Part shown: piece after piece, positions 399 to 32,988 of the stretch | Position numbering within the stretch: position 1 is the stretch's first letter | Layout: the number at the start of each line of letters is the position of its first letter | Origin: Puniceicoccales bacterium | Lineage (GTDB): Bacteria > Verrucomicrobiota > Verrucomicrobiia > Opitutales > UBA953 | Reading direction: 5' to 3' | DNA: 51,846 nucleotides | Assembly (NCBI GenBank): GCA_031273045.1 | Contig: JAISSQ010000143.1 | Location: 1 to 51,846, forward strand | Program-made: the position numbers and the translations under genes | The notes under the pieces: generated by a model | Told to the model about the DNA's origin: nothing | Seen by the model: only the letters and a program-made list of their open reading frames with translations | Databases searched by the model: none

Positions 399-456
399 GC
401 TTGGCGGGTGGCGGTAGGAGCGCGGGTCTCCGACCCGCATTGCTGACCGCAAGCCA

Positions 457-900: not shown

Positions 901-990
901 CTTTTAGCCCTTATCCCGCGTCTTCAACCTTCAACCTTCATCCTTTCTCCTGCCCTTATCCCTTTTCCCCCTGCACACCCCCCTTTACTC
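900..990 (+). promoter_or_regulatory. Polypyrimidine leader of the giant autotransporter gene
   Basis: About 90 bp before the ATG at 991 are almost all C and T, with repeated TTCAACCTTCA and CCCTTATCCC words. No Shine-Dalgarno sequence precedes the start codon, whose immediate context is CCCCCTTTACTC. If this is the 5' untranslated leader, initiation would have to be independent of Shine-Dalgarno pairing. No -10/-35 pair is clear. The promoter role is inferred from position only. Confidence 0.35.
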
Positions 991-3900
991 ATGAAACAAC
1001 ATCCCGTTCTGTCTTTTGCTCACGATGAAAATGGCGCGCCGCGCGGCGTCGCCGGCAACAGTGCCGCCGGCGGCGGCAACGCTTTTCCCGTTGTCGCCGG
1101 CAGCGGCGGTGGCGTCGGCGGTGGCGCGGCGGGCGCGGGGCGCGGTTCGCGGCGCGGTCGGTTGCGGCGGCTGTTGAGCGCGGCGGCGACGCTCGGCGCG
1201 TTGCTGGCACCGGCGGCGGCACCGTCGGTCTTCACGCAGGACGGCGCGGAGGGCGGCTTGTCGCTGGCGACCACGGCGCGGGCGGCGACGACGACGGTCT
1301 CGGACCCCGTGACCCTCGACGGCACTCCCATCACGGTCGCGACCGGCGACGAGTTGACCTACTCCGGCGTGGTGTCGGGCACGGCTTTGACGAAGGAGGG
1401 CGGTGGCACACTGATTTTGACGAACACGAACACGTTCACCGGCGACGTCACGATTAACGAGGGCGTGGTGCAGGTGTCCGCGCCGGGCAACGTCAACAAC
1501 AGTGGCAGCCACAATCTTGCGATTAACGCCGGTGGCACGTTCCGCCTCGTCACCGGCACTGAGGCGGCGCGCGTCACATTCACAATGCCGTTCACGGGCA
1601 GTAGCGACGGCATTCTCGAAGTCACCGGTCTGGGCGCGTTCAGTTGGGGTGGCGGCGAACTTGGCAAGGGCTTCACGAAGACCGGCGACGGTGGCGTGTA
1701 TATCTCCGGAAGCGGCGTCGCCGCGACCGCTGGCGACATTACCGTCAACGGCGGCTGGGTCGCTTTTTCCGGCCAATACAAGGTTGCCGGTGGCAACCTG
1801 ACCATCGGCCCCGGCGGTGGCATTCACATCACGAACGGACACGGTCGCTTCACCGGCTCGCCGAACATCATCTTTTCCGGCGACGCCTCCATCCCTGCCG
1901 AGCAGGGCGGCGTGTTCAACGTCGGCTACAACGAGACCATCAACTCGCTTACCGGTGAGACCGGTCTTATCACCAGTTGGGGCTTCTTTCATTTCGGTAT
2001 TGGCTACGCTTCCGGTGGTGCCAGCGTAGGCATCCTGACCATCAAGCAGGGCGATTTCGGCGGCAACATTGACAACGGACAGGACTTTGATACGAACAAC
2101 GAAGCGGACACCACCCCGTTCGGAATCATTAAGGCGAGCGACGGCTCCGCCACCGGTGGCACACTGACGTTGCGCGGTGTGAATACTTACAAGGGTGCCA
2201 CGACGGTTCAGGCGGGCACGTTGCGTTTGGTGGGGACGGCGTCGTTTCCGTCGGGGAATACGTTGACGGTTGCGGGGGCGGCGACGTTGGCGTTGGTCGG
2301 GGGCGAGTTTCGTCCGACGGTGACTTTTGCCAGCGGGTCGTTTTTGACGATGGACGCGGCGACAATGGGCGCGGCGGACTTGTCGGGATTGGGCAAGTTG
2401 ACCGTTGCCGGCGCGAGCGCGCTCACCGGCGACGTCAAGTTCAGCACGACCGCCGCGCTGCCGGTGGAGTTCCTCGTCAGCGACGGCGACGCCGTGCTGG
2501 ATTTGTCGGGGGTCAACCCCGCCACGAATCTCGACACGGCGAAGTTCACGGTGAGTGCGCCCGGTTACGCGCTGTTTGCGGACACCTCGTTCGCGCTGAA
2601 GGGGCTGCCAGAAACCGCCGCCTCGAACCTCGGTCTGTCCACCGACCTCGCCCGCTATTTCAAACTCACCTACGACGCCGCGCAGACCGCCTTCGTGCCG
2701 GAGTTCAAGGGCGACGTCGTCACGTGGGTCGGCGGTGACGGCGATTGGGCGACGGATGCGAACTGGGACACCGGCGCGAAGCCCGTTGCCGGCAACATGG
2801 TGGTCATCGCCGGCAACGTGACCGTCAATAGCGGCAGTTCGACCTCCGCGCTCTACAACGACAACTCCGTCATCGTCGTCCGCGACGGCGCGTTCCTGAA
2901 GATTAACGGCGACAACAATCCCGACACCCCCTCCTACAAGTTCTACCTCATCAACGGCACGTTGGAGGCGAGCGGCACGTGGTCTTACACCGACATCGTC
3001 CTGTCCGGCGGCCGCATCGAAATTCCGTCCGGCTGGATGGATGGGGACACGCCGATTTGGGCACCGATAAAGTTGCACGGCGTCATTTCGACCACCGCCG
3101 ACCAGACGCAGCCGAGTTACATCACCCAAGTCACCCTCAACTCCACCGCCTTCATTGCGCTCGGCGGGCACAGTGTCCGCACCGGTGTCTTCGACGTGGC
3201 GGACAGCCCGTTCGAGGTTGACCTCTACGTGGACATCGCGCTGCGCAACGGGCGCGACACCGGCAACACCATCTTCGCCGCGAATTTCACCAAGCAGGGC
3301 GAGGGCAATCTCGCGCTTTCCAAGGTGAGCAGTTTCACCGGTGCCACGACCGTTTCCGCCGGCACGCTGACCCTCGCGGTCGCCAACGCCCTTCCCGGAA
3401 CGAGCGGCGTCACCGTCGCCGGTGGCGCGACCCTCGCCGCGAGCGCGACGCAGAGTTTCGGAACGCGCCCGCTGACGCTCGCGGACGGCGCGCGCGTGTT
3501 CCTTGACGCCCGCTACGCCGACGTGGCGTTCGCCGCCGGTGCCGGCACCCTCGGCGCGAACCTCGCCGTCGGCGTGAAGTTCGCCGGCACCACCACTGAC
3601 GCGCACATCGCCTCGCTCGACCTCGCCGGCATTAACGCCGCGAACACCGCCGTCGCGCTGCGCGTGGACAACTTTTTGCCCGGCTCGAACACCTTCACGT
3701 TGACGGCGGACAACCTGACTCTGCCGCAGGTCTCGCTCACCGGCACCTTCGGGAACGTTTATCTAAACGACCTCGGCGGCGGCTCGTTCAACTTGCTGGC
3801 GTGGGAATCAATGAACGCTCGTCTGAACAACACTGCCGCCGGCACGGTTGTCTGGACGGATTACCGCAACGCCGACGGCTCGCTGAACACCGCCGCCGGT

Positions 3901-6900
3901 TGGGACAAGGAGGGTGCCAGCAAAGTCGCCGGCGGCGACACGTTCTACATCGCCGGCACCCTTGCCAGCCCACTCACCCTCGTCATCCCCGCCGGCAAGG
4001 AAATCGTCCTCAACGGCGGCAGCACGAACGGTGCTTACGGCATGCGCTTGGACAAGACCATCATCGGCGTGACCATCACCGGTGACGGCGTTTTCAACAC
4101 CGGCATTGGCTACTCGGATGCCGAAGGCGATGCCGCCTACCTGCAATGGAAGCACACGGCGATTTACTTCGGGAGCGGCGCGGGGCGGGGCACCATTGAC
4201 CCTTACAACATCACCCCCGAAGCCATCGTCGCGCTCGTCCCCGCGCTGACCATCCAGACCAAGATGACCGGTCGCGGCTACATTTCGACCACGGCAAACG
4301 GCATGCTGCTCACGGCGATTGAGGGCGACCTGTCCGAGTTCGAGGGATTCATCGCCGTCGCCGACAATGTCCTCGGCCGTCTCTCCGGTCCCATCGGCGA
4401 AGTCGGACCGCTCGCGCACTTCGACCTCAATGTGGAAGGACTGGGCGGCTACAATACGACGTGGGACGGCGTCTCCTACAGCGCCACCGAAGGTGCTTTC
4501 GGTCACTACAAGGCCGCCACTTCCGGCGTTCTCGCCATTACCCAACTCACCAAGGACCTGCTCTTCAAAGGCAAGGTGCACGGTCCCGGCGTTGTGATTT
4601 TTGACGGCGCGGGCTTCACCGACACCACCGGTCATTTCGGCACAACCGGCGCGACCTACGACGACGCCGTTCTGACGCTCGCCAGCGACGGCACCTTCCG
4701 CTCCACGCTCATCGCGCGCAGCGGCACCGTCGCGCTCGCCTCCGACGCCAACGCGCCCTCGGTGGACAACATCTACCCCGACTACAAGAACGACTTCCGT
4801 CTCGAAGGCACGGCGACGCTGCAGTTCACCGGTGCCGGTGAGACGATTACGCGCGATGTGACCCTCGCCGCCGACACCGTGAAAATCAAGGTCGGCACGA
4901 GCGACCCGCGCAACGACGCGCTTGCCGCCATCACGGTCAACTACGCCGGCACCTTCTTCAACGTCGCCAAGACCGGCAGCAACTACGTCGCCACGCAGGC
5001 GCACACCGCGCCGTCGGCGTTCACGAAGACCGGCAAGGGCACCCTGAACCTCACCGGTGCCGCCGGCGTCTCCGGCGTGACTGTCGCCGAGGGCACGCTG
5101 GGGGTCTCCGCCGCCGGCGCGTTCGCCGCCGGTGCGGACGTCTCTGTCAAAACCGGCGCGACACTGTGGCTGAACACGCCGACGGTTCCGGTGGGCGATT
5201 TCACCGCCGCCATCAACTCGACCATCGCCGCCGGCAGCGGCTCCGCGCTCACCATCTCGCTCAACGCCACCGGCGACGTGACCATCGCCGACGGCGTCAC
5301 GTTCCTCTTCAACGCCGGTCCCGCCGGCACCGTTGTCACGCTCGACCTTGGCAACATCGCCGCCAACGACCTGCCGAACGCGTTCACGATAGACGCCACC
5401 GGCTTCGGCGAGGGCACCGGCACCTTCCTCTTGAAGGGCGCGAACCTGTCGAACAATTTCGGCGGCAAGGACCTCTCGCCCGCGCTTGCGGACTACTTCC
5501 TGCTCTGGGACAGCGCGCAGCACGGCTGGTATGTCGTCACGCAGAACAGCGCGACAATTGACGGCGGCGAGATTGTGACCGTCGGCGGTGCCGCCGACTG
5601 GAACCGCGTCAGCGCGCCCACGACTTCCTCGACGGTTGCTGTCGGCGACGACTTTTCCGCGCTCGGCGTTGTCATTCTCAACCGTGGCGCGACGCTCAAT
5701 TTCGGTTCGGCGGCGATGACCGGCGACCGCGAGTTTGGCGCGCGCTTCGAGACCCCGACGCCGGAGGGAATGACCGCCGGCAACCCCGCGAAAATCGGCC
5801 TCGCCGCCGGCAGCGTGACGTTTACCGGCGTCGTTTCGCTTGGCGACACGCTCCAAATCGCCGGTGACCCTTCCTCGACGCTCGTGTTCACCGGTGGTGT
5901 GACGGGTGCGGGCACGTTGGACACCGGCAGTGTTTCGACGGTGAAGGTGCGCTTTGGCGGCGGCGTGTCGGACCTTTCCGGCGATTTGGCCGGCGCGGCG
6001 CAGTTGGAGGTGACCGGCGGCTCGCTGGCGTTGACGAAGGCGGCGACGAACTCGTTCACCGGCAGCGTCGCCGTCAGCGGCAGCGGCAAGTTGGTTTTGG
6101 GCGCGGAGAACGCGCTGGGGAACGCGGCGTCGCTGTCTGTCGCCACCGGTGGCACGCTCGCGTTGGGCGCGTCGCAGCAGTTTGCGTTTGGCGGCTCGTC
6201 GCCGCTCACCCTCGCCGACGGCGCGACGCTGCAAATCGGCTCGGCCGTCGGCCACGAAGGCGCGCAGAACATCGTCCTCACCGGCACCGTCACGTTTGCG
6301 GACACCGCGCTGGTTCTTTTCGCCGGTGGCGTTGGCGCGACCACGCTCGACTTCGGCTCGACCTTGGGCGCGTTGCCGGCGGGCGGCCTGCGCGTGAGCG
6401 TCGCGAACGGTTACGAACCGGATTGGGGCGCGGTGACCCTCGACAGCGATTTGTTCACCGGTGCCGCCGGGGAAATCGTCCCCGAAAACCTGCCCACGAA
6501 TTTCTATTTCGTTTGGGACGCGGACGCGGCGCTCTACTTCCTCGATGACCAGAATCATTCCCTCCGCACGTGGAAAGTGCCCGGAACGAGTGGCACTTGG
6601 ACGGATTACATCACGAACTGGGACAGGGTTATTGACAACTCCTTCGCCGGTAACCGCTACCAACTCACCGGCGGAACCGGAACGACCACCATCACCATTC
6701 CCGCCGGAAAAGTCATCACGGTTGACGCCACCGGCAGTGCCTCCAACGCCGGCATTTACGTCACGGGGCGCGCGTGGGTCATTGATGGCGAGGGCGTTCT
6801 CGACACCGGCGTCGGTCCCGACCGCACGAACGACGCCTCCGGTTGGAAGAACCCCTACGCCCACGCCGCAATCGTCACCACGAACACGCTCACGTCCGAA

Positions 6901-24900: not shown

Positions 24901-27900
24901 CGCACGCGCGCCGCAGGCGAGGCGGAGCCGGCGACCGGCTGGACCGGCACCGAGGCGCCCGCCGCGACCACCAACGACAAGTTCCTCAACATCAACCTCG
25001 TGAAGGTCGCGTGGTCCGGCGGCGGCGACGCCATCCAAGTCCAGTCCTCGCTCGTGTGGTATAACAACGCGGTCAACTCCGCCCACGGCTCCTTCAACAT
25101 CACCGGCACCGCCACCTTCACCCTCGGCTCAACCGCCGACGGCGCCAACGCCCGCACCACCATCCTCAACGACCGCGGCTCCGCCGACGACCCGGGCGCG
25201 GCGTATTGGGACGCGGCGGCGTTCGACACCACCGGCAGCGGCGACTTCTGGGACGGCAAGACGCTCACCAAGCGCGGCACCGGCACGCTCATCCTCGCCT
25301 CCGACAACGGCTACACCGGCGAGACCATCATCGAGGAGGGCGTCCTCGTCGCGAAGACCGTCCGCGCCACCGGACCCAACGACGCCGCCGACGTGTTCGT
25401 TGACGGCAACGGCACGTTCCGCCTCGACCTCTCGACCGCCAACAGCGGCGTCTTCCAGAAAACCATCACCGGCACCGGCGACCTCGAAAAGACCGGCGCC
25501 GGCGTCGTCACCCTCACCGCCGCGAACACCCTCTCCGGCGAAGTCGTCATCCGCGACGGCGCGCTCGCCCTCGCCACCACCGGCAGCGTCGCGGACGCCT
25601 ACCAAGTGACCCTCGTCGCCGACGCCGCCTCGCTCACCGCGCGGCCGCGCTTCGACGTCTCCGCCTACGGCGCGGGCTACGCCGCCGTCGTCGCCGGCAT
25701 CGAGGCGGACGCCCGCTCGACGGTCGTGCTCGGCGCGGCGTCGCTGCAAATCGGCTTCGACGGCAACGCCGGCAGCGGCTTCGGGCAACTCTCCGGCGGC
25801 ATCACCGGCAGCGGGCAAATCATCAAGACCGGCGGCAGCGGCCTCGTCCTCGACGGCCACGCCTCGTTCACCGGCGGCGTCCTCCTCAACGAGGGCGCGC
25901 TCGAAATCCGCTCCAACGACGGCGCCGGCACCGGCGCAATCGTCCACAACAGCGACGACGCGCTCATCCTCGCCCCGGGCGTCCGCGTCGCCAACACCAT
26001 CGAACTCGGCGCCGGAACGGACGCCGTCCGTCAGGTGCGCGTTGATGAGGATGTCGCGGCGCCTGCGGCGAAGGCCGTGCTGACCGGTGACATCACCGGC
26101 GGCGCCGGCGCCGAGTTTTCCAAGGAGGGCTACGGCATCCTGCGCATCGAAAAGAGCACCGCGTTCGACACGTTCGCCGGCGCGCTGAAGGCGCAGTCGG
26201 GCACGCTCGAATTCACCGGCACACGCCTCGTCCCCGCGCTGCGCGGCGGCGGCACATTCGTCGCCGACCTGCCCAGCGCCGGCAGCGAGTTCGCCTTCGC
26301 CACCTACGAGCAGAACGCCGTCTCGCGCTTCACCGGAACCTTCTCGCTCCCGCGCGGAACCGTGACGCTCGACGAGACCAACGCCGGCGCGCTGCGCGAC
26401 GCCGCGACCGTCCTCGGCGCCGACGCCGCCCTGCGCGTCACCCGCGACGCCTCGCTCGCCTCCGTCGCCACCACCGCCGTCACCAGCGCGCTGCGCTTCG
26501 ACTTCGCCAACTACGCCGTCGCCGGCCGCCTGACCGCCGCCGCGTTCGACATTCAGGACGGCGTGACCGTCGCCGTTGACGCCGCGAAGTCCCTCGACCT
26601 CGCCGCCGGCGCCGAGCCGTCCGGCGTGACGCTCTTCGACCTGTGGCGCGTCGAGGGCATCGCCGGCCCGCTCGCCCGCCAGCAAATCGTCGCCGCCACC
26701 ACCGTCTTCCCGCCCGCGCGCGGCCTCGATGACACGGTGTGGACGGACTACGCGGGCGCGCCGCTCGCCACCGCCGCCACCTACGCCGCGAACCCGTCCG
26801 CCGTCGCCGCCCGCCCGCTCTACGCCGGCAGCGAGCGCGTCGGCGACGCGAAGTTCGCCTACGCCGGCGCGCTCGACGGCGCGGGCCTCTACCTCGAAAG
26901 CGAGGTCGTCGAAATCAGCGCGGCGGCGACCAAGACGGTCGTGCTCGCCGCTCCCGTCGCGGCGGTCGAGGCGGACTCGAAACTGCTGGCGAAACTGACG
27001 GGGCAGGGCGGGTTCGAGTTCACCACCGCCGGCGCCAGCATCGCCGTCGGCAACGAGGAGAGCGACTACCGCGGCGCGACCACGCTGCGCGGCGTGCGCG
27101 TCGTCATGGCGAGCGACAACGCCTTCGGCGCCACGCTCTCGCTCAACCTGCTTGAGGACGCGCAGTTGGAGATGGACGGGCGCGCGCAGACCGTCCGCGC
27201 GCTCAACGGCGCCGCCGGCACCGAAATCATCGTCGGCCGGCTCACGGTTGACGGCGGCGGCGTTTTCGACGGCACGCTCACCGGCGACGGCGCGGCGAAC
27301 GCCGGCGACTTCTCGCTCACCAAGAGCGGCAGCGCGACGCTCACCCTCGCCGGCGCGAACGACTACGCGGGCGCGACGCGCGTCACCGCCGGCACGCTGC
27401 TCGTCACCGGCTCGCTGGGCACCGACTCGATTGACTCCTCGCTGCCGGGCAAGGTCACCGCCGGCGCGTTTGAAATCAGCGCGGGCGCGACGCTCGCGTT
27501 CGACCTCGCCGCCGGCGCCGCGCAGGCGCTCACCGGCTCAATCAGCGGCGAGGGCGACATCGCCAAGAGCGGCGAGGGAACGCTGACGCTCGCCGGCACC
27601 GGCAACTCCTACAACTCCACGCGCGTCACCGGCGGCGCGCTGCGCATCTACGCGAGCGGCTCGCTCGGCGGCGGCGTCAACACGCTCGACGGCGGCACGG
27701 TGGTCTTCGCCGGCGAGGACTTCACGAACTACTCGCCCGAATGGACGCTCGGCGCCGCCGGCGGCACGTTCAACAACGAGGGCGACGCGATTCTCTCCGG
27801 CCGCCTCTCCGGCACCGGCTCGCTCACCAAGACCGGCACCGGCACGCTCGAAATCACCTACGCCGCCAACGACTACGCCGGCGGAACGAACGTCCTCGAA

Positions 27901-30900
27901 GGAACCCTCGCCATCGGCGGCGACGGCAACATCGGGCGCGGGCTGAACCTGCTCGACGGCGGCGCGCTGCGGCTCGCCGGCGCGCCCGACGCCGCCTCGC
28001 TCGACCCCGCGCGCTACACGCGCAACTGGGTCGTCGGCGCGAACGGCGGCAGCATCAGCAGCACCTACTCGGTGCGGTTCGACGGCGACATCGCCGGCGA
28101 CGGCTCGGCGGCGGCGAAACTCGTCAAGACCGGCGCCGCGCACGTCGGCGGCCTGATTACCGCGCCGCTCGCGGTCATCGAGTTCAACGGGGTCGTGTCC
28201 GTCGCGTTCGAGGTGCGCGAGGGCGCGGTCGGCGGCAGCGGCTCGCTCTCGAACGTCACCTTCGCCGCCGGAACCGTCATCTCGCCCGGCGCCGACGGCT
28301 TGGAGCAGACCGAGGGACGCGCGGGACGCGCCACCGACGCCATCGGCACGCTGCGCGTCGGCACGCTCGATGCCGCCGGCAACGCGGTCACCACGCGCTT
28401 CGAGGGCGTCACGTTCCACTACGACCTCGGCAGCGAGGGCGGCTCGGACTGGGTGCGCGCGAGCGGCGACGCCTACTACGGCGCGTCGAACACGTTCGAC
28501 CTGAACTACACCGGCGGCGGCTCCGCGACCGAGAACGTCTGGGGCACCGGCGCGTTCATCGTGCTTTCCGCCGACGGCGCGCTGGGCGTCGCCGACGGCG
28601 CGCTCGCCAACACGTCGTTCTCCTATCGCGGCGTCTCGATGGACAGCGAGAGTTCGCGCGTGAAGGCGATCCTCGCCATCGCCGGCGAGCGCGGCGAGAA
28701 CCTCGTCCTGAACACCTACGCGACCGCCAGCACCGACATGGTGTGGAACGGCACCGCCACCGAGAACGTCTGGGCGAAGGGCGCGGCCTCGACGCTGAAC
28801 TGGTCTGAAATCGGCGCGCCGGTGACGTTCCAGGACGGCGACAACGTGACGTTCACCGGCAACGGCTCGCAGAAGACAATCCACGTCACCACCGAGGGCG
28901 GCGGCGTCGTCGTCGGACACATGGTCGTTGACGCGCCGGACTTCACGTTCGACGGCGGCAAAATCGTGGGCGTCGCGACGCGCTACTCCGGCGGCGGCGG
29001 CGAGGCGAACGGCGCGCTCGACATCCTCGCCGGCGCCACGAACGTGGTGTTCGCGAACGACGTGGACTTCGCCGCGCTCAACGTCGCCGGCGGCTCCTCG
29101 GTCGAGTTCCAGCGCTTGGCGAACTTCGACAGCGTGAGCATCGCGCCGGCCTCGACGGTCACGCTCTCCGGCGCCGGCGCGTTCGGCGGGGACGTGACCG
29201 CCATCCAGAACGACGGCTCGCTCGTCATCGCGCGCACCGACGGGCGCGCCTACTCGCTCGCCGCGAACATCACCGGCAGCGGCGCGCTCGACATCGAGGC
29301 GCGCGACGGAACGGTCGAACTCACCGGCGCCAACACCTACACGGGCGCGACGACGGTGCGCGACGGCGTGCTGGTCATCGCGTCCGACGCGAATGTCGGC
29401 GGCGCGGAGACGGAGGGCGTGCTCGACGCCGGCTCGCTCGACCTGTCGAAGGGCTTGAACTTCGCCAAGGCGTGGGCGCTCACGGAGCGCGGCGGCGCGT
29501 TGGTCGCCGGCGAGACGCCTTCGGGCGCGACGGCGGCGGTGGTGTTCTCCGGCGCAATCACCGGACCGGGCGCGCTCGCCAAGCGCGGCGCGGGCAAAAT
29601 CACGCTCACCGGCAGCGTCGGGCACACGGGCGACACGAACGTCGAGAACGGCGCGGTCGAAATCAGCGGCACGCTGGGCGAGCGCGACACGCCGGACGCC
29701 GGCAGCGGCTACACTTACCGCGCGAACATCGGCGTCGGCGCCGGCGAGTCCGAGACGGAGACGGCGCGGCTGGTGTTCGCGCAGAGCGTCGCGCAGACGC
29801 TCGCCGGCACCGTCACCGGTCTCGGAACGGTCGAGAAGGACGGCGCGGAGAAACTCGCGCTGACCAACGCGGAGGTGACGCACACGGTGTCGCACTGGGT
29901 CAACACGCGCGGCGAAATCAGCGTCGCCGGCGGCATCACGACGCGCGAAATCAACAACGCGGGGACGTTCCTCGCGGGCGGCGCGGCGTTGCCGGCGGGC
30001 GGGAGCGCGGAGGCGTTGTCGCTCGAAGAGGCGGCGGCGCTGGGCGGCTCGGTGAGCGTCTCGGCGGCGCCGGCGCTCGGCTCGTCGTTGAAGACGGGCG
30101 AGCAGTGGGGCTTGAGCAACAGCGGGACGTTCGTCGCCGGCTCGCTCATCGCGGTCGAGACGGCGGCGGTGGCGTCGGCGGCGGAGGCGCAGGGCGCGAA
30201 GCCGTCGGCGTTGCTGCGGAACACGGGGACGCTCGTGGTGGCGTCGGCGTTCGTCGGCGGCGATCAAGCGTCGCTGTTCACGAACACCGGCACCGCGGTC
30301 GTCGGAAAGACGCTCTCCGGCGCGGTGCGGCTCGAAAACGCGGGCGCGCTCACCGCGGGCGAAATCGCGCTGGTCGCGGCGGCGTCGGTTGACACGGCGC
30401 GCGGGACGGACGTCTCCGGCTCGCTCTCGAACACGGGGACGCTGTCGGTGACGGGCAAAATCACGACGGCGAAGGCGTTTGAAAACGCGGCGCTGGGTCA
30501 CGTCACCGCCGGCGCGCTCGAAGTGGCGTCGGGCGGGTTGAACAACGCCGGCTCGACGGTGCTCACCGGCGGCGACGGCGCGCTCGTCACCGGCGGCTTC
30601 ACGAACACGGGGGCGTTCACGGCGCAACGCATCACGCTGGGCGACAGCGTCAGCGGCGCGGTGCTCGACAACGCGGGCGCGCTGACGGTCGCGGGCGAGG
30701 TGGTCAGCGACGCGGGTGGCGCGCGCATCAGCGACACCGCCGGCCTGATTGAGGGCAGCGTGACGAACCGCGACGGCGGCGCGCTCGTGGCGTGGCGCAT
30801 CAAGGGCGCGTTCGACAACTCGGCTTACGGTGAGGGCGCGACGTCGTCGGCGACGGTCGGCGCGGTCACCGGCAACGTGACCAATTCCGGCGCGCTGCAC

Positions 30901-32523
30901 CTCGGCATCCGCCCGCTCGACGCGAACGGCCGCGCGGCGGCGTTGGAGTCGCGCGTCGGCGGCGACCTCATCAACAACTTCGGCGGAACGGTGAACCTGA
31001 ACGGGGACATCGCGACGCACTACGTGACGGGGCGCGTGCTCAACGACGGGTGGATTAACTTCGGCTCGTTCGGACAGGTGCTGCGCGTCGGCTCGCTGAC
31101 CAACATGGCGGGCACCGGCGTCGGCTACTACAGCATCGAGGCGAACTTCGCCTACGGCAAAACCGCCGCCGGCAACGATGTCGGCGAGACCGACCACATC
31201 GTCGTCGAAGGAACAGGCGTCATCAGCGGCCGCCACGTGTTCTCCGTGCGAAACGTCTTCGGCGCGGACAGCGTGACGCCGGACTGGACGTTCAACCTGA
31301 TTCAGGGCGGCGCGATGGCGGGCGACACGCAGGTGCGGCTCGCCCAGCCGTTGCAGGCGGGAATGTATAGTTTCGACATCATCGGCGAGGGCAACGCGGT
31401 GCTGCGCTACGTCGGCTACAGCGACCTCGGCCAGACGGCGGTCAACAGCGCGGGCGTCGTCGCGACGGGCTGGTTCTCGCAATTGGACAACCTGCACAAG
31501 CGGTTCGGCGAACTGCGGCTGCCGTCGCAAACGGTGACCGCCGCGCGCGCCGCCGCCGAACGCCGCGCCGCAAGCGCAAGCACGCTCGACTACGGCAGCG
31601 ACCTGCGTCCGCCGGCACCGCCCGCGCCCCACCCGTCGAACGACTTCTGGGTGCGCGCCTACGGCGAGCAACTCAACGTGGACTTCGGCTCCTCCCTCAA
31701 CTCGCTGCGCGCGCACCAATACGGCGGCGACGTCGGCTACGACCGCTCGTGGTATCGCGACGACGCGCACGAACTCTACGCGGGCGTGTTCGCGGGATAC
31801 CAAGTGTCGCGGCTGACGTTCCACGACGCGAGCCGCAGCAAGGGCGACACCGACAGCGTCGCCGCCGGCGGCTACCTCGCGTGGACGCACCGCGACGGAT
31901 GGTTCGCCGACGCGGTGCTCAAGGGGCAATACTTCGACTCGTCGTTCAAAAGCGGCGGCGTCTATGACGGCTCCACCGGCACCACCAGCGGCACCGCGAA
32001 AGGCGCCTACGAAAACTACGGACTGGGCGCGTCATTCGAGTTCGGCAAACGCTTCGAACTCGGCGCCGACTGGTTCATCGAACCCAGCGCGCGCTTCGCC
32101 TACTGGCACCTGTTCACCGAAAACTACCGCTTGAGCGGCGGCGGCGACGCCACCGTGAGCGTCGGCAACTCGGACATCTTCCAATTGAGCGCGGGCGCGC
32201 GCTTCGGACGCGCGTTCGACCTCGGCGGCTGGGGCATTTTCCAACCGCACGTGCGCGCCGGCTTCGAGCGGCAGGACAGCGACGGCGGCGCGGTCACCAT
32301 TCAGGACGAACGGCTCGCGCCGAACCTGGACGGACTGCGCGGCGTCGTGGGCGTCGGGTTCAACTGGGCGTTCGGCGGGGCGAAAACCACCCTCACCGCC
32401 GCCGGTGAAATCACCGAATCCGGCTACCCGACCCAGCAGGTGTATTTTGAATACGAATACAGTTTCGGCGAAAAATACACCAAACCCTGGTCCCTCAACG
32501 CCGGCTACCGCGTGCGGTTCTGA
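991..32523 (+). CDS. Giant type V autotransporter adhesin (10,510 aa)
   Basis: This is a self-exported surface protein: a long beta-helical passenger expected outside the cell and an outer-membrane barrel. The first 60 residues are Gly/Ala-rich and basic (RRGRLRR at 54-60). A hydrophobic core at 61-81 and a possible cleavage after ARA (98) follow, so this is an extended signal peptide. The passenger is Gly/Ala/Thr/Asn-rich with about forty copies of the autotransporter-associated repeat (LTKxGxGTLxLT...FTGxxxVxxGxL), for example near 1393 and 7718. I noticed only three cysteines. Residues about 10150-10180 hold the linker-helix motif (WFSQLDNLHKRFGELR). The barrel starts at NDFW (10217) and ends YRVRF with the usual terminal Phe. 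The frame is open from start to end, so the gene looks intact. The ligand is unknown; adhesion or biofilm roles are known for the family. Repetitive DNA makes assembly error possible. Confidence 0.93.
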   Translation: MKQHPVLSFAHDENGAPRGVAGNSAAGGGNAFPVVAGSGGGVGGGAAGAGRGSRRGRLRRLLSAAATLGALLAPAAAPSVFTQDGAEGGLSLATTARAATTTVSDPVTLDGTPITVATGDELTYSGVVSGTALTKEGGGTLILTNTNTFTGDVTINEGVVQVSAPGNVNNSGSHNLAINAGGTFRLVTGTEAARVTFTMPFTGSSDGILEVTGLGAFSWGGGELGKGFTKTGDGGVYISGSGVAATAGDITVNGGWVAFSGQYKVAGGNLTIGPGGGIHITNGHGRFTGSPNIIFSGDASIPAEQGGVFNVGYNETINSLTGETGLITSWGFFHFGIGYASGGASVGILTIKQGDFGGNIDNGQDFDTNNEADTTPFGIIKASDGSATGGTLTLRGVNTYKGATTVQAGTLRLVGTASFPSGNTLTVAGAATLALVGGEFRPTVTFASGSFLTMDAATMGAADLSGLGKLTVAGASALTGDVKFSTTAALPVEFLVSDGDAVLDLSGVNPATNLDTAKFTVSAPGYALFADTSFALKGLPETAASNLGLSTDLARYFKLTYDAAQTAFVPEFKGDVVTWVGGDGDWATDANWDTGAKPVAGNMVVIAGNVTVNSGSSTSALYNDNSVIVVRDGAFLKINGDNNPDTPSYKFYLINGTLEASGTWSYTDIVLSGGRIEIPSGWMDGDTPIWAPIKLHGVISTTADQTQPSYITQVTLNSTAFIALGGHSVRTGVFDVADSPFEVDLYVDIALRNGRDTGNTIFAANFTKQGEGNLALSKVSSFTGATTVSAGTLTLAVANALPGTSGVTVAGGATLAASATQSFGTRPLTLADGARVFLDARYADVAFAAGAGTLGANLAVGVKFAGTTTDAHIASLDLAGINAANTAVALRVDNFLPGSNTFTLTADNLTLPQVSLTGTFGNVYLNDLGGGSFNLLAWESMNARLNNTAAGTVVWTDYRNADGSLNTAAGWDKEGASKVAGGDTFYIAGTLASPLTLVIPAGKEIVLNGGSTNGAYGMRLDKTIIGVTITGDGVFNTGIGYSDAEGDAAYLQWKHTAIYFGSGAGRGTIDPYNITPEAIVALVPALTIQTKMTGRGYISTTANGMLLTAIEGDLSEFEGFIAVADNVLGRLSGPIGEVGPLAHFDLNVEGLGGYNTTWDGVSYSATEGAFGHYKAATSGVLAITQLTKDLLFKGKVHGPGVVIFDGAGFTDTTGHFGTTGATYDDAVLTLASDGTFRSTLIARSGTVALASDANAPSVDNIYPDYKNDFRLEGTATLQFTGAGETITRDVTLAADTVKIKVGTSDPRNDALAAITVNYAGTFFNVAKTGSNYVATQAHTAPSAFTKTGKGTLNLTGAAGVSGVTVAEGTLGVSAAGAFAAGADVSVKTGATLWLNTPTVPVGDFTAAINSTIAAGSGSALTISLNATGDVTIADGVTFLFNAGPAGTVVTLDLGNIAANDLPNAFTIDATGFGEGTGTFLLKGANLSNNFGGKDLSPALADYFLLWDSAQHGWYVVTQNSATIDGGEIVTVGGAADWNRVSAPTTSSTVAVGDDFSALGVVILNRGATLNFGSAAMTGDREFGARFETPTPEGMTAGNPAKIGLAAGSVTFTGVVSLGDTLQIAGDPSSTLVFTGGVTGAGTLDTGSVSTVKVRFGGGVSDLSGDLAGAAQLEVTGGSLALTKAATNSFTGSVAVSGSGKLVLGAENALGNAASLSVATGGTLALGASQQFAFGGSSPLTLADGATLQIGSAVGHEGAQNIVLTGTVTFADTALVLFAGGVGATTLDFGSTLGALPAGGLRVSVANGYEPDWGAVTLDSDLFTGAAGEIVPENLPTNFYFVWDADAALYFLDDQNHSLRTWKVPGTSGTWTDYITNWDRVIDNSFAGNRYQLTGGTGTTTITIPAGKVITVDATGSASNAGIYVTGRAWVIDGEGVLDTGVGPDRTNDASGWKNPYAHAAIVTTNTLTSEAGAWFPSVAQSTGAANLTIRTKLVGSGNIVPAGNEGEFHVSFEGDMSEWSGYAVTRTNTILRFAGAVTATNPDAIILLQFSGSDVTNINHYGHDGGGQLVAGFWANQPGNSIITHLTKDLTWQATVQGTALMFYDGAGFTDTAGAYGTAGTVYPDSILTLAGDENWRVYLVTRSGTVAAATDANLPTNTGIRGGNLDFRFEGTSTLQFTGDGETITREVDIAADTVKIKVGTADPRNDALDAITVNYAGTFVYYNQSGNDYADEAKRLAPKAFTKTGRGTLNLTAATGATGITVSEGTLGLSHDNAANGATVTVNDGAALWLNTPDAALATLNLATGAALEVGPRDSAATGTATITLSAVGTVNISGPALTLILNTAADPDALTVLDLGGANLGAVTALTIKAPAVSFDTGSFALTGGGLTLAALNAATLVLPEDIAGAFTEPRSNYFVFVAEDTSGIAFYVNTGGVITNALIDPDSDNAKRNVQVKTGGTGSAPGFSLGDDVHVGSFGARTGDADPAIVLNTAGHTLYAKEISFAAGAVLTLTNLFGGAGATVGLVAEDTGAGAASPLTVKFAAGSELWFERNYTAPAGFNFTGAAGGTYLLGTRDAGDSLGDPTNVVLTLTGDAGAFGGQLAGNIALDGAAAALELTGTTPSVNRARLAASNGATIAFGANANFAGTLVLGDGATAGSTATDAVFAAGIAGNSAAVVSALTLAGNIVFDIASLPAGGVTTGANTLLSAASSADYDATALAGVSVRGLAKHSIRGSVAADAAAGAVKLTVTATGVASGNFYGEYADSTAVSGASLYTAAHNWAGWVVPAAGARVDFDTANTDAASALVDITGAGINNTNDNDNGWHVTGIAVTLAADPAAASQPVNVRRITVTGTGASLTFGANTTAGGANTALTYYADAADGNSLRFAGAGIGYNTIWWAHDSTNAATSTLRNGSIIFDASLGNLATGAIHTFGAGGDIIYNAAPATAETLASLGWYSANTTAASTIGLYVTDPAATLNLSKLNNTKTGYGIVKGGAGVLALTESGSFGGAFFTVNEGVLELSRSAADSVTGAISVVPDTGAKAVVRWTADNQIGDTTAVSTVGGATAATAAVLDLNGRADTVGSLSLGANITQIGVAAGATGGALTVAGQVALATQARVEIAAGSAVNIAGGGRLALGAGAQVTGAGALVLGADADSVTTLAISDFLVAADVSGTGAGATLLNAADAPTYFSNLTINGLVNFDGSALGADIVPNKEYIAFVADALVYGDDARWNFGDEFSFRTIGSTTGGALGALVFRLTSVPATVYSVNLNFGSQNITDPDGAGAVSVPPEGWNQGSDFNGTNKSNVLVKGYKAAGIVSGAARVLNGSLTASWTSSSTGTSGKTITTGNGQLLKSGLDGGSGSASTSVTFNKGAFVSATAFLGAADATTNPHPVGATFAGFRPVTAYLYTPIIGQGADLTLFPWRVNGTWFNPITLDANNNAARTTTNWNSTNLFGLNDSDSNWNKENVSTFEAIAYGGAGVGNTVKIDLASNRDLLPKALNLEFLTDAAKSAYEDDLAGIQLIYQTYEGQFAKIAPTATSPVTWTDSTAATPVWLMSELDGSFSASAVADLWEESGNAVALIDRSADLVIANSISANGIWTRDDGSGSVVVTITAEPGVTALTLKGRQGSTIHTDAGTTLAINAPLAGLQTIINEGALSLTSSLPLGADAAGAVIYTGTGALTLGAGTALNVSFFDAPTEIHGAGTITSGITGTYTWTIYEGDFAGEINKTTDTNWYLRKDGTGTLTLAGASRSTFNASSMTFGTGAWANAIAGVAIVGGRLEINSDGLGIGQNAFGDATGGPLGPNVFVNSDTNRDNIRNVIGLDEDATLAFTGHGAHVLNRALWRVNYPIAGTAATFEVTNADATVLIPYVVGNNLVKTGLGTLIYGNPNASVTADGTGGNLAGGAIQNGATTNAGAGWGGLIVREGTVVLARATAMFTFSESTQKLSIEGGTLRIGSVAEGAPGTNTVVTPLTGATIVKANQIAGNGEGENDSAQTSGRVFLVSGALDLNGRWEQSRTIAITGGAIIDTSAGGGGMLEVTATKTGADAFLLQDAVISYAFLFNAGIVNVEHGYFDTDGGTDGFKLGATNLTIGVGAGGGTIEKLNGGDANYNLNIGSADPAGSGVLSAGTLTTTATTTYAGKVTVFGGATFVGNAHNTAIFQNVVLNSTVDPITGEITNPAEFVLFNGGDGQRTGVSITGTGNFTVRGTNTTNNPTNGPTTQILVIKTGTIALGRGSVFTIDGGIFNHTDASTSVDFSNNYATLNLTATGRYDIRGGKPVFGGLTGEGVIVFGGSAADGAASLTLGNGTQLGDVFTFHGVVSRTSATFTGTLGSTKEFDVYKIGQGTQIVLGDGTGANNAANPGSGFAPRALYINEGVFQFGNDDGVTTASTAAAENGAFFVGAATLGTVSIAAAGKLVVANPTLQEITTLITSATAGTGLFEKTGAGEFIIRSASTGFTGDVTVTKGALVFADNGATIGAFGATADYIVKRGASLVFRHDADYTFAPTGTVTGAGEIVQDSAGLLTIGRDIPTGNGSNSGVILRAKQGTVTATPGVSLAGVTLNSGTTLLAQGSSFGAMTLGNSTTAETTLRFSAGENRATSAVTRGTVSVDVLPLIVTAGDVANGVSVKLLSTPASPIDISAWELTTPLRDPAAGLVHGGTNHDTRREVWLDMPAFTPDALVWRGYESTDWNYSGYAANIANWDNATTGATRDEFFAFDTVEFGNAGISAGKNTVNLVGDLAPYATYVTNTTGTYTFAGTGRVIYGELIKTGAGTLQINTTGNAFTTARLQDGVVGIGSVDAFDADTLISFEGGTLALPTAVTGQTVVNDVYVGAAGGTIRANTAANTPHLFSGTFTGDGTLTITNALSNANNWTWQHTGTVGAPDFTGTIRFDALGKFLLSGDWSNTTAVLARTDAANSTGAYSFETANLTIKEVDVLGPAYLYTSGMFAVGKITAPDHGGAAGARWGQLQIRGGNNAAYYFTGVDGVLEVNVAADRFIVFSGSGAYVKDNPVTGAVTLVKTGPGPLDIQMSAGYWQATGGIQVLEGDVWVADGSSGTSQGNIGLFSAGAPVYVAKGAGLWVTRDELQPGSGSVITIEGTLKTSGWGGVGNLTLAGGTWHIAGADTNADWPSAAITTGGIVNVKVRSDGETTSYMTQEAGSGFALGQGANTSVTFNIEQNALLVVSGILRNGWGGGGANNGFVKSGDGTMRVTNTSNAFTGAVTVTGGVLEFSDRRALGDASGRTLVLSGGGAIRYTGTQSSLKGGSNDTNANFARTISTGIGGGVIEVETGDPDDMLALNEVSGDITKTGSGTLYVGGTGGYASGTLTILEGSYVASSAFHGSSASIAAGATYYGKKDTGAFDKSPELNVSGTFDLRGRPSGTIAVLTGDATGNITNTGNNATVIGSSYGNGADAVVTVNAGNYAGTFGLNNADNRLTSLTKATAGTLVLSGGTAAAPSLLGTLTVSGGTLELAPTSVITLTSGASVVFGASAAPTTLKAFGEIRLVNTGTTLAINDYGTFISAPTTKVTGAANISGTGGVDSALLLMLGNASTFEMHGGEFDAIAFPKGDTSKTTLVAGATAAEIVKVGKLVERPGDVAIDVSALLSSGTVTAGAATPFLVFKDFIDANISLTATTSVIPSDWTVTATGARSTPTLSIIANPDAATAAAYPNALAIAFSVAPYDIEWTVGQNTTWTTTTGDLEWANFNDATNTYNPNDGTHGNSPVEDPTDFYAGDRVFFRGAGATAGQTVTVTLTGTLAPGAIFVNSDALASGSVNYTFAGTGSITGGAPLEKRGAGTLTISMANPNWKGAVTIDDGRVIAATATSLGSGQVTLNGGILQLNAHNFASPIEVPAGVTAALDNGGCVDDKGRVVSSLLTGGGTLQLLRTGTGGSSIWAFNFTRAGNPDFTGTIELLATGKLQFGGGGDWSGTSVLMSGAYVANENCFEVPTDGTKVKSVTYTGGGRIYNTKRLDVSLLTLGSGATGALTIDQAGGLTSSFPYDGTDPALAGKYVLTIDNQSATQSITLSGSGGIADSAGTKPLTVVKTGQGTFTSASNDTYSGGLWIQGGSWVSTGDSKPFAQTSAVVIEKGASLVLAGDGDIADFGSALWTAEVRGTIEVRGASNVQGQWFLPAVTLIGGTLFSNVTPGSLNGSYYGGGPVELTKTITVKPLTQEWIDANPAFSAGMVAGTDAAPTVSTFTMTNAVNTPNHAGFLLGNSAVSTITFDVEAKAQLLVNAALRGSYLGWSTAEGAGNIIKTGAGEMILAHDGNSFSGSLTIAEGTFTVGDGTNGLLGGATATGVANTGGSYAGAISIAHGATLRFDTGTKAQTLTGNVKSAAGIGESVIEKVSGGTLTFSTGTLVVDRLIDRGGTISLNNAGSTLSHIEVYGTGGSVVFSSDANSQIEFPVGKVTLIGDAPTITIADKGSIYISAANTFTSAKPVTFYVDGGRITAYGAQTLVAGVGAAGSKIIVGSGGLNLRQNHGSTFNLAAALTVTLPILEDPASTGGGVTKDERAGNIVILAAENTYTGDTVALAGELRVTGSLGALTGTREHTYGGDFLIGNPAASGDSIITIAPAAYTTQILTGAITATPATNGTAIFQKLGLGDLVLTQKLVLANGPGTAKAVFAEGTVWLDGGIDVPVLESAPVNAVAGTGLGAKIHLTNTTAGANTVGALDLSGANTVLYVADGATLTLNATLQTVRAGAALEVGVGSTLALTAALGAIELNDGRLGYNDSRNLLPSPSNSVELATGATGTITVSGSASVVTVTGGLTGAGSLLKDGDGALLVTTVPAYTGSTTAAQGLLKFTNGLGAEDTVTNEWSNSGMFYLTPGATLEIAQNTGAPFAAASVQYLHGTFATHLGDGEARLLKSGDVDLVFSAATAAIGMLDVTNGTVTFAPYTHTVGMSTVTEYGTFEGAFRVTGTGVENSVKLIVDYPDADHALPVTLRGESELANGGALIVANSTQFLADPDAAEDAPAPTLVLRNTGIIEVRQGTLTLDAAVGDAAGATGLLVKTGAGALDLLHGATHTAGTAVREGTIVFHASNALGTGGAITFGTSATNGGIAVGADVTDASLRLDNPVAFGGAVNTISVGATAAGDAQVLTLAGAITNAAGAGYLAGGTLEKTGAGVLVLANTVNTFSGNITVVAGEVRFAAGGALGSTTAPRVIELQNGAVLHAANAAGSPATTGNYLDLLLTGSGEVRTDNQLTFSGALTGTGELVKTGAGTLSLVNNSTLFTGDITLRAGRIEIGGAAQLGDTTAAGRVITLGWHDATAGDTTGVLGVSLNAPGALGTPFVPETPESSPGAGDGAPAVASTLTLVISADASGAPLGVLDVRGANALTLNAKVAGAALVKTGEGTLILTNPTNAQQGVEVRDGYVETGDYRTLGGAGNGASLTLGATATSGGLRLTNAAPLALEGEGNYSGVTLFRIATGGGVLDLAGDDVSFGGTFLGVGDAAPGLLNKTGAATFRLTGSRADYSGAFAITQGALALESALSSGKGAITIFGGGTLLLDNDGGTLANPLAGAGTVRFAPDALSAQKTLTLAPALAGGASPSFGGAYVVVNDGTLVTTIPALGSGNWALYLADAATNGSFASSGEITSAHLVFLGAVPGETPAAAGATDANFIVAADSTLTLNTAVSGSARLVKTGAGALELSRANTGLTGGILVSEGTLAFNTNNSLGAAGNVVTLDGADAVLTTTGTKGITHALNIGAAGGEINLASTVTLCLESATAGSGSFLGNDTGTAGDTSRVLAKTGRGTLALGASGTADTAAFTGIVEVREGSLTLASTDALANAALLHAFTPAANTTLQVTVPAPQTLAALQLDAGARLAFSGASASARALTLGYAPTDESTIAGTVVSLQTLTVNGVLNLAAGVSLQTGGTTTFAPGSTFAVNGKNALLATGQIVFDNSDPSGAGLPTIRVDYYDNDLAFTIARAAGGIPYEDWTAYVRTRAAGEAEPATGWTGTEAPAATTNDKFLNINLVKVAWSGGGDAIQVQSSLVWYNNAVNSAHGSFNITGTATFTLGSTADGANARTTILNDRGSADDPGAAYWDAAAFDTTGSGDFWDGKTLTKRGTGTLILASDNGYTGETIIEEGVLVAKTVRATGPNDAADVFVDGNGTFRLDLSTANSGVFQKTITGTGDLEKTGAGVVTLTAANTLSGEVVIRDGALALATTGSVADAYQVTLVADAASLTARPRFDVSAYGAGYAAVVAGIEADARSTVVLGAASLQIGFDGNAGSGFGQLSGGITGSGQIIKTGGSGLVLDGHASFTGGVLLNEGALEIRSNDGAGTGAIVHNSDDALILAPGVRVANTIELGAGTDAVRQVRVDEDVAAPAAKAVLTGDITGGAGAEFSKEGYGILRIEKSTAFDTFAGALKAQSGTLEFTGTRLVPALRGGGTFVADLPSAGSEFAFATYEQNAVSRFTGTFSLPRGTVTLDETNAGALRDAATVLGADAALRVTRDASLASVATTAVTSALRFDFANYAVAGRLTAAAFDIQDGVTVAVDAAKSLDLAAGAEPSGVTLFDLWRVEGIAGPLARQQIVAATTVFPPARGLDDTVWTDYAGAPLATAATYAANPSAVAARPLYAGSERVGDAKFAYAGALDGAGLYLESEVVEISAAATKTVVLAAPVAAVEADSKLLAKLTGQGGFEFTTAGASIAVGNEESDYRGATTLRGVRVVMASDNAFGATLSLNLLEDAQLEMDGRAQTVRALNGAAGTEIIVGRLTVDGGGVFDGTLTGDGAANAGDFSLTKSGSATLTLAGANDYAGATRVTAGTLLVTGSLGTDSIDSSLPGKVTAGAFEISAGATLAFDLAAGAAQALTGSISGEGDIAKSGEGTLTLAGTGNSYNSTRVTGGALRIYASGSLGGGVNTLDGGTVVFAGEDFTNYSPEWTLGAAGGTFNNEGDAILSGRLSGTGSLTKTGTGTLEITYAANDYAGGTNVLEGTLAIGGDGNIGRGLNLLDGGALRLAGAPDAASLDPARYTRNWVVGANGGSISSTYSVRFDGDIAGDGSAAAKLVKTGAAHVGGLITAPLAVIEFNGVVSVAFEVREGAVGGSGSLSNVTFAAGTVISPGADGLEQTEGRAGRATDAIGTLRVGTLDAAGNAVTTRFEGVTFHYDLGSEGGSDWVRASGDAYYGASNTFDLNYTGGGSATENVWGTGAFIVLSADGALGVADGALANTSFSYRGVSMDSESSRVKAILAIAGERGENLVLNTYATASTDMVWNGTATENVWAKGAASTLNWSEIGAPVTFQDGDNVTFTGNGSQKTIHVTTEGGGVVVGHMVVDAPDFTFDGGKIVGVATRYSGGGGEANGALDILAGATNVVFANDVDFAALNVAGGSSVEFQRLANFDSVSIAPASTVTLSGAGAFGGDVTAIQNDGSLVIARTDGRAYSLAANITGSGALDIEARDGTVELTGANTYTGATTVRDGVLVIASDANVGGAETEGVLDAGSLDLSKGLNFAKAWALTERGGALVAGETPSGATAAVVFSGAITGPGALAKRGAGKITLTGSVGHTGDTNVENGAVEISGTLGERDTPDAGSGYTYRANIGVGAGESETETARLVFAQSVAQTLAGTVTGLGTVEKDGAEKLALTNAEVTHTVSHWVNTRGEISVAGGITTREINNAGTFLAGGAALPAGGSAEALSLEEAAALGGSVSVSAAPALGSSLKTGEQWGLSNSGTFVAGSLIAVETAAVASAAEAQGAKPSALLRNTGTLVVASAFVGGDQASLFTNTGTAVVGKTLSGAVRLENAGALTAGEIALVAAASVDTARGTDVSGSLSNTGTLSVTGKITTAKAFENAALGHVTAGALEVASGGLNNAGSTVLTGGDGALVTGGFTNTGAFTAQRITLGDSVSGAVLDNAGALTVAGEVVSDAGGARISDTAGLIEGSVTNRDGGALVAWRIKGAFDNSAYGEGATSSATVGAVTGNVTNSGALHLGIRPLDANGRAAALESRVGGDLINNFGGTVNLNGDIATHYVTGRVLNDGWINFGSFGQVLRVGSLTNMAGTGVGYYSIEANFAYGKTAAGNDVGETDHIVVEGTGVISGRHVFSVRNVFGADSVTPDWTFNLIQGGAMAGDTQVRLAQPLQAGMYSFDIIGEGNAVLRYVGYSDLGQTAVNSAGVVATGWFSQLDNLHKRFGELRLPSQTVTAARAAAERRAASASTLDYGSDLRPPAPPAPHPSNDFWVRAYGEQLNVDFGSSLNSLRAHQYGGDVGYDRSWYRDDAHELYAGVFAGYQVSRLTFHDASRSKGDTDSVAAGGYLAWTHRDGWFADAVLKGQYFDSSFKSGGVYDGSTGTTSGTAKGAYENYGLGASFEFGKRFELGADWFIEPSARFAYWHLFTENYRLSGGGDATVSVGNSDIFQLSAGARFGRAFDLGGWGIFQPHVRAGFERQDSDGGAVTIQDERLAPNLDGLRGVVGVGFNWAFGGAKTTLTAAGEITESGYPTQQVYFEYEYSFGEKYTKPWSLNAGYRVRF
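3853..5109 (+). repeat. Passenger module 1, first copy (about 419 codons)
   Basis: Within the giant gene, this block runs from WTDYRN to GTLGVS. It matches the block at 6598-7806 in order and detail: IPAGKEI, TGDGVFNTG, EGDLSEF, LTKDL, DGAGFTDT, FRLEGTATLQFTGAGETITR, ADTVKIKVGT, DPRNDAL, ITVNYAGTF, then FTKTGKGTLNL. It represents a large internal duplication rather than one passenger repeat. Confidence 0.85.
6598..7806 (+). repeat. Passenger module 1, second copy (about 403 codons)
   Basis: This is the partner of 3853-5109. It shares IPAGKVI, DGEGVLDTG, EGDMSEW, LTKDLTW, DGAGFTDTAG, FRFEGTSTLQFTGDGETITR, ADTVKIKVGT, DPRNDALDAITVNYAGTF and FTKTGRGTLNL. The first third has diverged most; the last 120 residues are nearly the same. 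Confidence 0.85.
15067..16722 (+). repeat. Passenger module 2, first copy
   Basis: This block starts at the codon for W in VWRGYEST. Shared order with 18088-19890: a WANxxN/IANWDN segment, TYTFAGTG, a passenger repeat, FTGTIRFDALGKFLLSGDWS, a VLEVN-type segment, VVKTG/LVKTG, a terse TWHIAG sheet, a TxVTFNIEQNALLVV segment and a final NAFTGAVTV repeat. Similarity is structural and moderate, weaker than in module 1. Confidence 0.65.
18088..19890 (+). repeat. Passenger module 2, second copy
   Basis: This is the partner of 15067-16722: NYTFAGTG, LEKRGAGTLTI, FTGTIELLATGKLQFGGGGD, SGSGGIADS, VVKTGQGTF, SGGLWIQGGSWV, STITFDVEAKAQLLVNAALR and IIKTGAGEMIL occur in the same order. It contains two of the few cysteines seen in the protein (GGCVDD and NENCFEV). 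Confidence 0.65.
29953..31010 (+). repeat. Short N-(A/T)-G repeat zone before the barrel linker
   Basis: In this part of the passenger the long autotransporter repeats give way to about a dozen short units built on N(A/T/S)GxLxV: NNAGTF, NSGTFV, NTGTLVV, NTGTAVV, NAGALTA, NTGTLSV, NNAGSTV, NTGAFTA and NAGALTV. Periodicity is roughly 20-25 residues, as expected for beta-helix rungs. It lies just before the autochaperone-like region and may be a membrane-proximal stalk. Confidence 0.7.
31639..32520 (+). other. Autotransporter beta-barrel domain of the giant protein
   Basis: These are residues 10217-10510, 294 residues, a normal length for the autotransporter beta-domain. It starts NDFWVRAYGEQLNV and shows alternating strands such as LYAGVFAGYQVSRLTF, YENYGLGASFEFGKRF and WFIEPSARFAYWHL. 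It ends in strand LNAGYRVRF with C-terminal Phe, the signal for BAM-mediated insertion. Confidence 0.93.
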
Positions 32524-32600
32524 AGAAAGGGGGAAGGAAAGGAGGAAGGAAAGGATGAAGGAAAGGATGAAGGATGAAGGTTGAAGGATGAAAGAAAGGA
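32524..32600. repeat. Polypurine tract (GGAAGGAAAGGATGAA family)
   Basis: These 77 bp after the giant gene's stop are almost pure A and G, with GGAAGGA, AAGGATGA and AAGGTTGAA words. AAGGATGAAGGTTGAA (32570-32585) is the exact reverse complement of the word starting at about 930 in the 5' leader, so the gene is flanked by an inverted pair. No hairpin terminator is visible. Confidence 0.7.
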
Positions 32601-32615
32601 TGGAGCGCCGCACAT

Positions 32616-32736: not shown

Positions 32737-32795
32737 CAGTTGCGGGTCAGGAGACCCGCGCTCCCAATCGCCACACGCCAAGCCGATACACCCCT

Positions 32796-32960: not shown

Positions 32961-32988
32961 CAGTGGCGGAGCGGCGAACACCCTTATT

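What the first reader, a model, noticed from the sequence alone, without database searches (positions are those of the whole stretch)
991..32523. Intact 10,510-residue autotransporter gene
A single open frame of 31.5 kb with an export signal, about forty passenger repeats and a complete barrel is at the extreme upper end for type V secretion. A beta-helical passenger of this size would reach far beyond the cell surface and is costly to make, so lack of any frameshift suggests selection.
Basis: partly seen in the sequence, partly recalled or inferred. Interest (0 to 1): 0.75.

Follow-up and report, generated by a model that had tools for sequence, protein, structure and literature searches.

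The report
Giant 10,510-residue type Va autotransporter gene
This is a real, uninterrupted bacterial gene for a one-megadalton self-exporting surface protein, as long as the longest one in the survey literature, and the same genome (a Verrucomicrobiota relative of MAGs filed as Puniceicoccales) carries at least two and probably three others of that size, one of them longer.

Summary
Window 991-32523 (+) is one ATG-to-stop frame of 10,510 codons (1.05 MDa), and it is coding throughout. Its C-terminal 510 residues are a textbook type Va unit. AlphaFold gives pLDDT 87, with a beta-helix end, an alpha-helical linker and 12 barrel strands. Solved relatives are Vag8, BrkA, EspP and Hbp. The passenger has 3 cysteines and about 33 beta-strand repeats (not quite forty).

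A chimera is unlikely. The contigs overlap by exactly 119 nt, so the assembly looks like a k=119 graph. The longest exact repeat found inside the gene is 30 nt. A same-genus MAG carries a gene collinear with residues 7,359-10,510. Upstream of about residue 7,100 no collinear counterpart was found, and the two clearest internal duplications lie there. This suggests growth at the membrane-distal end.

The gene is not alone. The 3.1 Mb MAG has 23 autotransporter barrels. Other frames reach at least 13,549 and about 10,190 residues, and a contig pair probably gives at least 10,800. Barrel or repeat frames fill about 12% of the assembly.

The size is not unprecedented: BigE has 10,429 residues (Celik 2012). 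I file it as a new member of a known kind. Surface adhesion is the likeliest role, but it is inferred. "No frameshift, so selection" is weak.

The parts
991..32523 (+). Whole autotransporter gene, ATG to TGA, 10,510 aa, 1.05 MDa, pI 4.5, 3 Cys
991..1284 (+). Export signal region (residues 1-98): long G/A-rich n-region, arginine-rich stretch, hydrophobic core about 61-79, candidate ARA-A cleavage at 98
   Evidence: read from the sequence; no predictor available; similar long-n-region 'SRRWLAAAA'-type starts in several paralogs
1285..30990 (+). Passenger, residues 99-10,000, with about 33 PATR/TIGR02601-type beta-strand repeats between residues 132 and 9,556
3298..5460 (+). Copy 1 of an internal duplication of about 900 aa (residues 770-1490)
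   Evidence: 46-51% identity over the best part, offset about 900
6019..8163 (+). Copy 2 of that duplication (residues 1677-2391)
15160..16899 (+). Copy 1 of an older duplication of about 1,020 aa (residues 4724-5303)
   Evidence: 25-29% identity, offset 1020-1029
18220..20112 (+). Copy 2 of that duplication (residues 5744-6374)
23065..32520 (+). C-terminal third (residues 7359-10510), collinear with a complete-frame gene in a same-genus MAG (G008:C32, 4,862-codon frame)
   Evidence: about 30-45% identity
30991..31419 (+). End of beta-helix / autochaperone-like region (residues 10001-10143)
   Evidence: AlphaFold model; profile match to pertactin 419-532 and to the IcsA chain 3ml3; sub-threshold Pfam AC_1
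31423..31578 (+). Alpha-helical linker containing the conserved WFSQLDNLxKRxGELRL motif (residues 10145-10196)
31636..32520 (+). 12-strand outer-membrane beta-barrel ending in ...YRVRF
   Evidence: PF03797, TIGR01414, model with 12 strands, Foldseek to BrkA 3qq2 E 1e-25, TMt 0.88

Best explanation
The gene encodes a classical monomeric (type Va) autotransporter with a very long beta-helical passenger. Most likely pathway: (1) a long Sec-type signal exports the unfolded chain to the periplasm; (2) BamA inserts the C-terminal 12-strand barrel; (3) the C-terminal beta-helix end leaves first and its folding at the surface drives outward transport of the remaining ~10,000 residues, from C to N; (4) the chain stays as a surface fibre, about 200 nm if it forms one continuous beta-helix, acting as an adhesin or surface coat. 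Shown here: the intact coding frame, the Va barrel/linker/autochaperone-like unit, the repeats, cysteine scarcity, an Omp85/BamA gene in the genome, and a collinear C-terminal third in a congener. Inferred: the export steps, the fibre shape and length, retention versus release, and adhesion. The protein seems to have grown at its N-terminal, membrane-distal side by adding and duplicating modules of about 900-1,000 residues onto a shared membrane-proximal stalk.
For: Frame and coding bias; barrel and repeat families (5, 6, 8, 69, 70, 77); profile match to Vag8 (E 7e-72), BrkA, EspP, Hbp, AIDA-I, pertactin; model pLDDT 87.3 with helix linker and 12 strands and Foldseek to autotransporter barrels; 3 Cys in 10,510 residues; Omp85 188 bits in own genome; internal duplications; collinear congener genes G008:C32 and G007:C67; all 24 barrel matches in the genome lie in frames without stops.
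Against: No expression, export or structural data exist. The passenger fold could not be modelled confidently. TamB was not found, though TamB is not strictly required and the MAG is 84% complete. No Shine-Dalgarno motif or sigma-70 promoter match was seen upstream. No known ligand-binding domain was recognised in the passenger.
Confidence: 0.8

Rival explanations
1. Assembly chimera: two or more shorter autotransporter genes, or pieces of several paralogs, were joined through shared repeats in a short-read assembly.
For: MAG of 247 contigs with at least 23 related genes, several broken at contig ends; base composition drifts along the gene.
Against: Contig ends overlap by exactly 119 nt, so the assembly is a k=119-type graph; the longest exact repeat in the gene is 30 nt, within it or against the fetched contigs, and the listed whole-genome DNA matches show nothing long and near-identical (list and scored candidates truncated). 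Residues 7359-10510 are collinear with a gene in an independently assembled MAG.
Confidence: 0.06
2. Open but decaying or unexpressed gene: the frame is real but no longer used or only recently enlarged.
For: dN/dS between internal duplicates is near 1 or above for the older pair; no ortholog of the N-terminal 1,200 aa in congeners; no clear promoter or SD.
Against: Coding bias persists over all 400-codon blocks; all barrel-bearing frames of the genome are intact; the dN/dS test is unreliable at GC3 near 90%.
Confidence: 0.08
3. The passenger is cleaved and released, or carries a specific activity, rather than serving as a tethered adhesive fibre.
For: Many Va passengers are released; some paralogs here carry added domains, such as a cyclophilin domain in C179.
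Against: No protease, lipase or other enzyme domain found in this passenger by Pfam.
Confidence: 0.25

Closest known systems
BigE, 10,429-aa autotransporter (Celik et al. 2012, PMC3419190), described there as the largest known autotransporter
   Same: Type Va barrel with a passenger of about 10,000 residues; growth by replication of passenger segments
   Different: BigE repeats one passenger domain eight-fold plus eight 69-aa repeats and is related to beta-proteobacterial BrkA-like proteins. The window gene has only diverged duplications and PATR repeats, and lies in a Verrucomicrobiota MAG
BrkA / Vag8 (Bordetella) autotransporters
   Same: Closest solved barrels: Vag8 E 7e-72 and BrkA E 2e-66 by profile; BrkA TMt 0.88 by fold
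   Different: Far shorter; the passenger is not aligned beyond the beta-helix end
Giant1-5 surface proteins of Apilactobacillus kunkeei (PMC12863079)
   Same: Insect-associated bacterium devoting a large genome share (6%) to 3,000-8,000-aa beta-solenoid surface proteins
   Different: Gram-positive, no barrel, not type V; an analogue, not a relative

Membership tests
Type Va (classical) autotransporter | Single C-terminal 12-strand outer-membrane barrel (PF03797/TIGR01414) | tested here: met
Type Va (classical) autotransporter | Alpha-helical linker directly before the barrel | tested here: met
   helices at model residues 145-175 and 180-196, conserved KRxGELR motif
Type Va (classical) autotransporter | Autochaperone / beta-helix end preceding the linker | tested here: met
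   profile aligns to pertactin 419-532 and to IcsA 3ml3; strands at model residues 9-143. The Pfam AC_1 match is below its cut-off
Type Va (classical) autotransporter | N-terminal Sec signal in the same chain as passenger and barrel | tested here: inconclusive
   signal-like segment by eye, unusually long n-region; no predictor available
Type Va (classical) autotransporter | Beta-helical, cysteine-poor passenger | tested here: inconclusive
   PATR/TIGR02601 repeats and 3 Cys; the fold of the segment tested was not predicted confidently
Type Va (classical) autotransporter | Actual secretion of the passenger to the surface | not testable with these tools
   needs experiment
Trimeric autotransporter (Vc) / two-partner (Vb) | Vc: short 4-strand-per-chain barrel; Vb: separate TpsB transporter and TPS domain | tested here: not met
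   12 strands in one chain; the PF03797 barrel is in the same ORF

The most novel reading that the evidence does not exclude
One uncultured Verrucomicrobiota lineage has built an arsenal of megadalton type Va autotransporters. There are at least three, and probably four, above 10,000 aa in one genome, including one of at least 13,549 aa that exceeds the 2012 published record. They share a membrane-proximal stalk and elongate distally by module addition. If so, Va secretion has no practical length limit near 10,000 residues.
Probability: 0.5. Interest if true: 0.65.

Novelty: new member of a known kind. Interest (0 to 1): 0.5.

Why it matters
Type Va export uses no ATP at the outer membrane; surface folding of the passenger is thought to pull the chain out. 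Passengers of 10,000 to more than 13,500 residues would be the hardest natural test of that model and of Bam-assisted translocation. A genome spending about 12% of its assembled DNA on barrel or repeat frames would also show how far a gut-type symbiont may invest in its surface, comparable to the bee symbiont A. kunkeei (6%, PMC12863079).

Tried and rejected
Single-sequence AlphaFold of passenger residues 7001-7600: pLDDT 41, not interpretable beyond being beta-rich. Hydrophobic-residue autocorrelation to find a rung period: only short-range strand signal, no rung period. dN/dS between internal duplicates: uninformative. The first genome-contig scan with the barrel alone found nothing; an alignment query worked. 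IMG/VR gave no relative. One phage-collection record matched weakly (26.8% identity); probably a mislabelled fragment, not pursued. Antisense ORFs up to 3,690 aa were rejected as mirror images of the codon bias. A literature search for giant autotransporters in Verrucomicrobia gave nothing relevant. Synteny with congeners: none of the downstream window genes matched the congener stretches held (two of its autotransporter query pieces were out of frame by my error and were redone).

Full report
OBSERVATION. The frame 991-32523 (+) is a single ATG-to-TGA ORF of 10,510 codons, 1,051 kDa, pI 4.5. All 400-codon blocks show GC3 of 79-96%, well above GC1 and GC2, in this frame.

ANATOMY. Residues 1-98 look like a long export signal; this was judged by eye, not by a predictor. 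The passenger has about 33 PATR-like repeats by a local profile, 29 of them at 10 bits or more; 15 significant TIGR02601 stretches; and only three cysteines. It is not a tandem array. BLAST finds two clear diverged duplications with offsets of about 900 and 1,020 residues, both in the N-terminal two-thirds, and weaker similarities elsewhere.

C-TERMINAL UNIT. Residues 10,001-10,510 were modelled with a 25-sequence alignment (pLDDT 87.3, pTM 0.82). The model shows a beta-structured end of the passenger, helical linker segments of 31 and 17 residues, and 12 barrel strands. Profile search against the PDB returns Vag8 (7e-72), BrkA (2e-66), EspP, Hbp, AIDA-I, pertactin and IcsA. Foldseek returns BrkA, EspP, Hbp, EstA, AIDA-I and NalP. 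This is a type Va autotransporter by every feature that could be tested well.

IS IT A CHIMERA? The window is contig C132 of a 3.12 Mb, 247-contig genome, 84.5% complete and 1% contaminated. Several contig ends in this genome overlap by exactly 119 nt, as a k=119 de Bruijn assembly leaves them. The longest exact repeat inside the gene is 30 nt, and 29 nt is the longest shared with the contigs fetched by then. Whole-genome DNA searches list no long near-identical copy (only the best candidates were scored and the second list was truncated). A congener gene, G008:C32 (frame 4,862, closed at both ends), is collinear with residues 7,359-10,510 at about 30-45% identity, and G007:C67 (frame 6,989) with residues 8,662-10,510. 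So the 3' third is supported by an independent assembly. Upstream of residue about 7,100 there are only scattered local matches in the congeners searched, so that part rests on the assembly itself.

THE GENOME AROUND IT. The same genome has 23 PF03797 barrels, and all matches lie in frames without stops. Frames above 10,000: C132 (10,510 from its ATG), C207 (10,208 codons; about 10,190 from its ATG) and C160 (at least 13,549, 5' end off the contig). C196 (4,944, open at both ends) ends with 28 nt identical to the start of C134 (5,910, 5' open, with barrel), and the overlapping translations agree in frame, so a fourth gene of at least 10,800 aa is probable. Barrel frames total 88,246 aa (8.5% of the assembly); with repeat-bearing frames lacking a barrel, mostly cut at contig ends, the total is 12.2%. 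The barrels fall into two deep clades. C132 groups with a congener frame of 3,775+ aa and an own C17 frame of 849+ aa, while C134 sits in another branch, so long passengers are not one recent duplication.

RELATIVES. The C-terminal module (alignment A1) is found at E 1e-20 or better in 7 of 79 family genomes, all of the window's own genus, attached to frames from 198 codons (cut by contig ends) to 13,549. Named records with matching contig lengths are MAGs filed as Puniceicoccales bacterium (Nc350_bin88, Pc512_bin4, Cf509_bin39). I recall such sample codes from a termite-gut study but could not verify the host. More distant relatives occur in Ereboglobus and in Opitutaceae and Verrucomicrobiales MAGs. 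In 289 genomes drawn from the phylum, the longest other frame listed was 7,032 (at most 8 candidates per genome were scored and the list was cut).

MECHANISM. From established Va biology: Sec export, Bam-assisted barrel insertion, C-to-N translocation driven by surface folding. An Omp85 gene is present; TamB was not detected. If about 10,000 residues formed one beta-helix at 20-25 residues per 0.48 nm turn, it would reach about 190-240 nm (inference from general beta-helix geometry). The conserved part is membrane-proximal and the variable part is distal, which suits a stalk that presents changing tips or modules. Adhesion is the commonest role of such passengers and my preferred function, but no binding domain was identified.

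COMPARISON. BigE (10,429 aa) was reported as the largest known autotransporter in 2012 (PMC3419190). The window gene equals it; C160 exceeds it by at least 3,100 residues. I did not find a later record in the library searched, which lacks preprints and most subscription papers, so no claim of a world record is made. Verdict: a genuine, extreme member of a known kind; the genome-wide concentration of giants is the more interesting fact.

Noticed in passing
G000:C160 (L025-L027), frame at 3-40649: A longer autotransporter frame, at least 13,549 aa, with its 5' end cut by the contig edge; longer than BigE.
   Followed up: partly
G000:C196 end / C134 start (L107, L030): A 28-nt exact end overlap whose translations agree suggests one autotransporter of at least 10,800 aa split over two contigs.
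   Followed up: partly
G000:C179 (L044:5576-8971, minus): Autotransporter of about 1,100 aa whose passenger carries a cyclophilin-type peptidyl-prolyl isomerase domain (PF00160, 93 bits) plus a PF03797 barrel: a possible surface-displayed PPIase.
   Followed up: partly
G000:C98 (L042:15-5414, minus): Autotransporter with Chlamydia polymorphic-membrane-protein repeats (PF02415) together with a PF03797 barrel, in a Verrucomicrobiota genome.
   Followed up: no
window 1-420 and 32600-33130: Clusters of intergenic palindromic repeats (GCCGACTTGAAAGTCGGC, GGCGCTCCATGTGT and its complement) flank the giant gene on both sides.
   Followed up: no
window 41184-41214, 45719-45756, 47903-47935, 49410-49449: Short tandem repeats of 7-base units, some inside ORFs (including the DNA ligase frame); 7 is not a multiple of 3, so copy-number slippage could shift frames.
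   Followed up: no
window 946-990 and starts of paralogs: The 15 autotransporter starts examined lack a Shine-Dalgarno motif, and those of the larger genes mostly follow a pyrimidine-rich leader.
   Followed up: partly
G000:C198:613-1017 (L091) beside the autotransporter at C198:2518-3255: A second, weaker Omp85 match lies near a 730-codon autotransporter frame.
   Followed up: no
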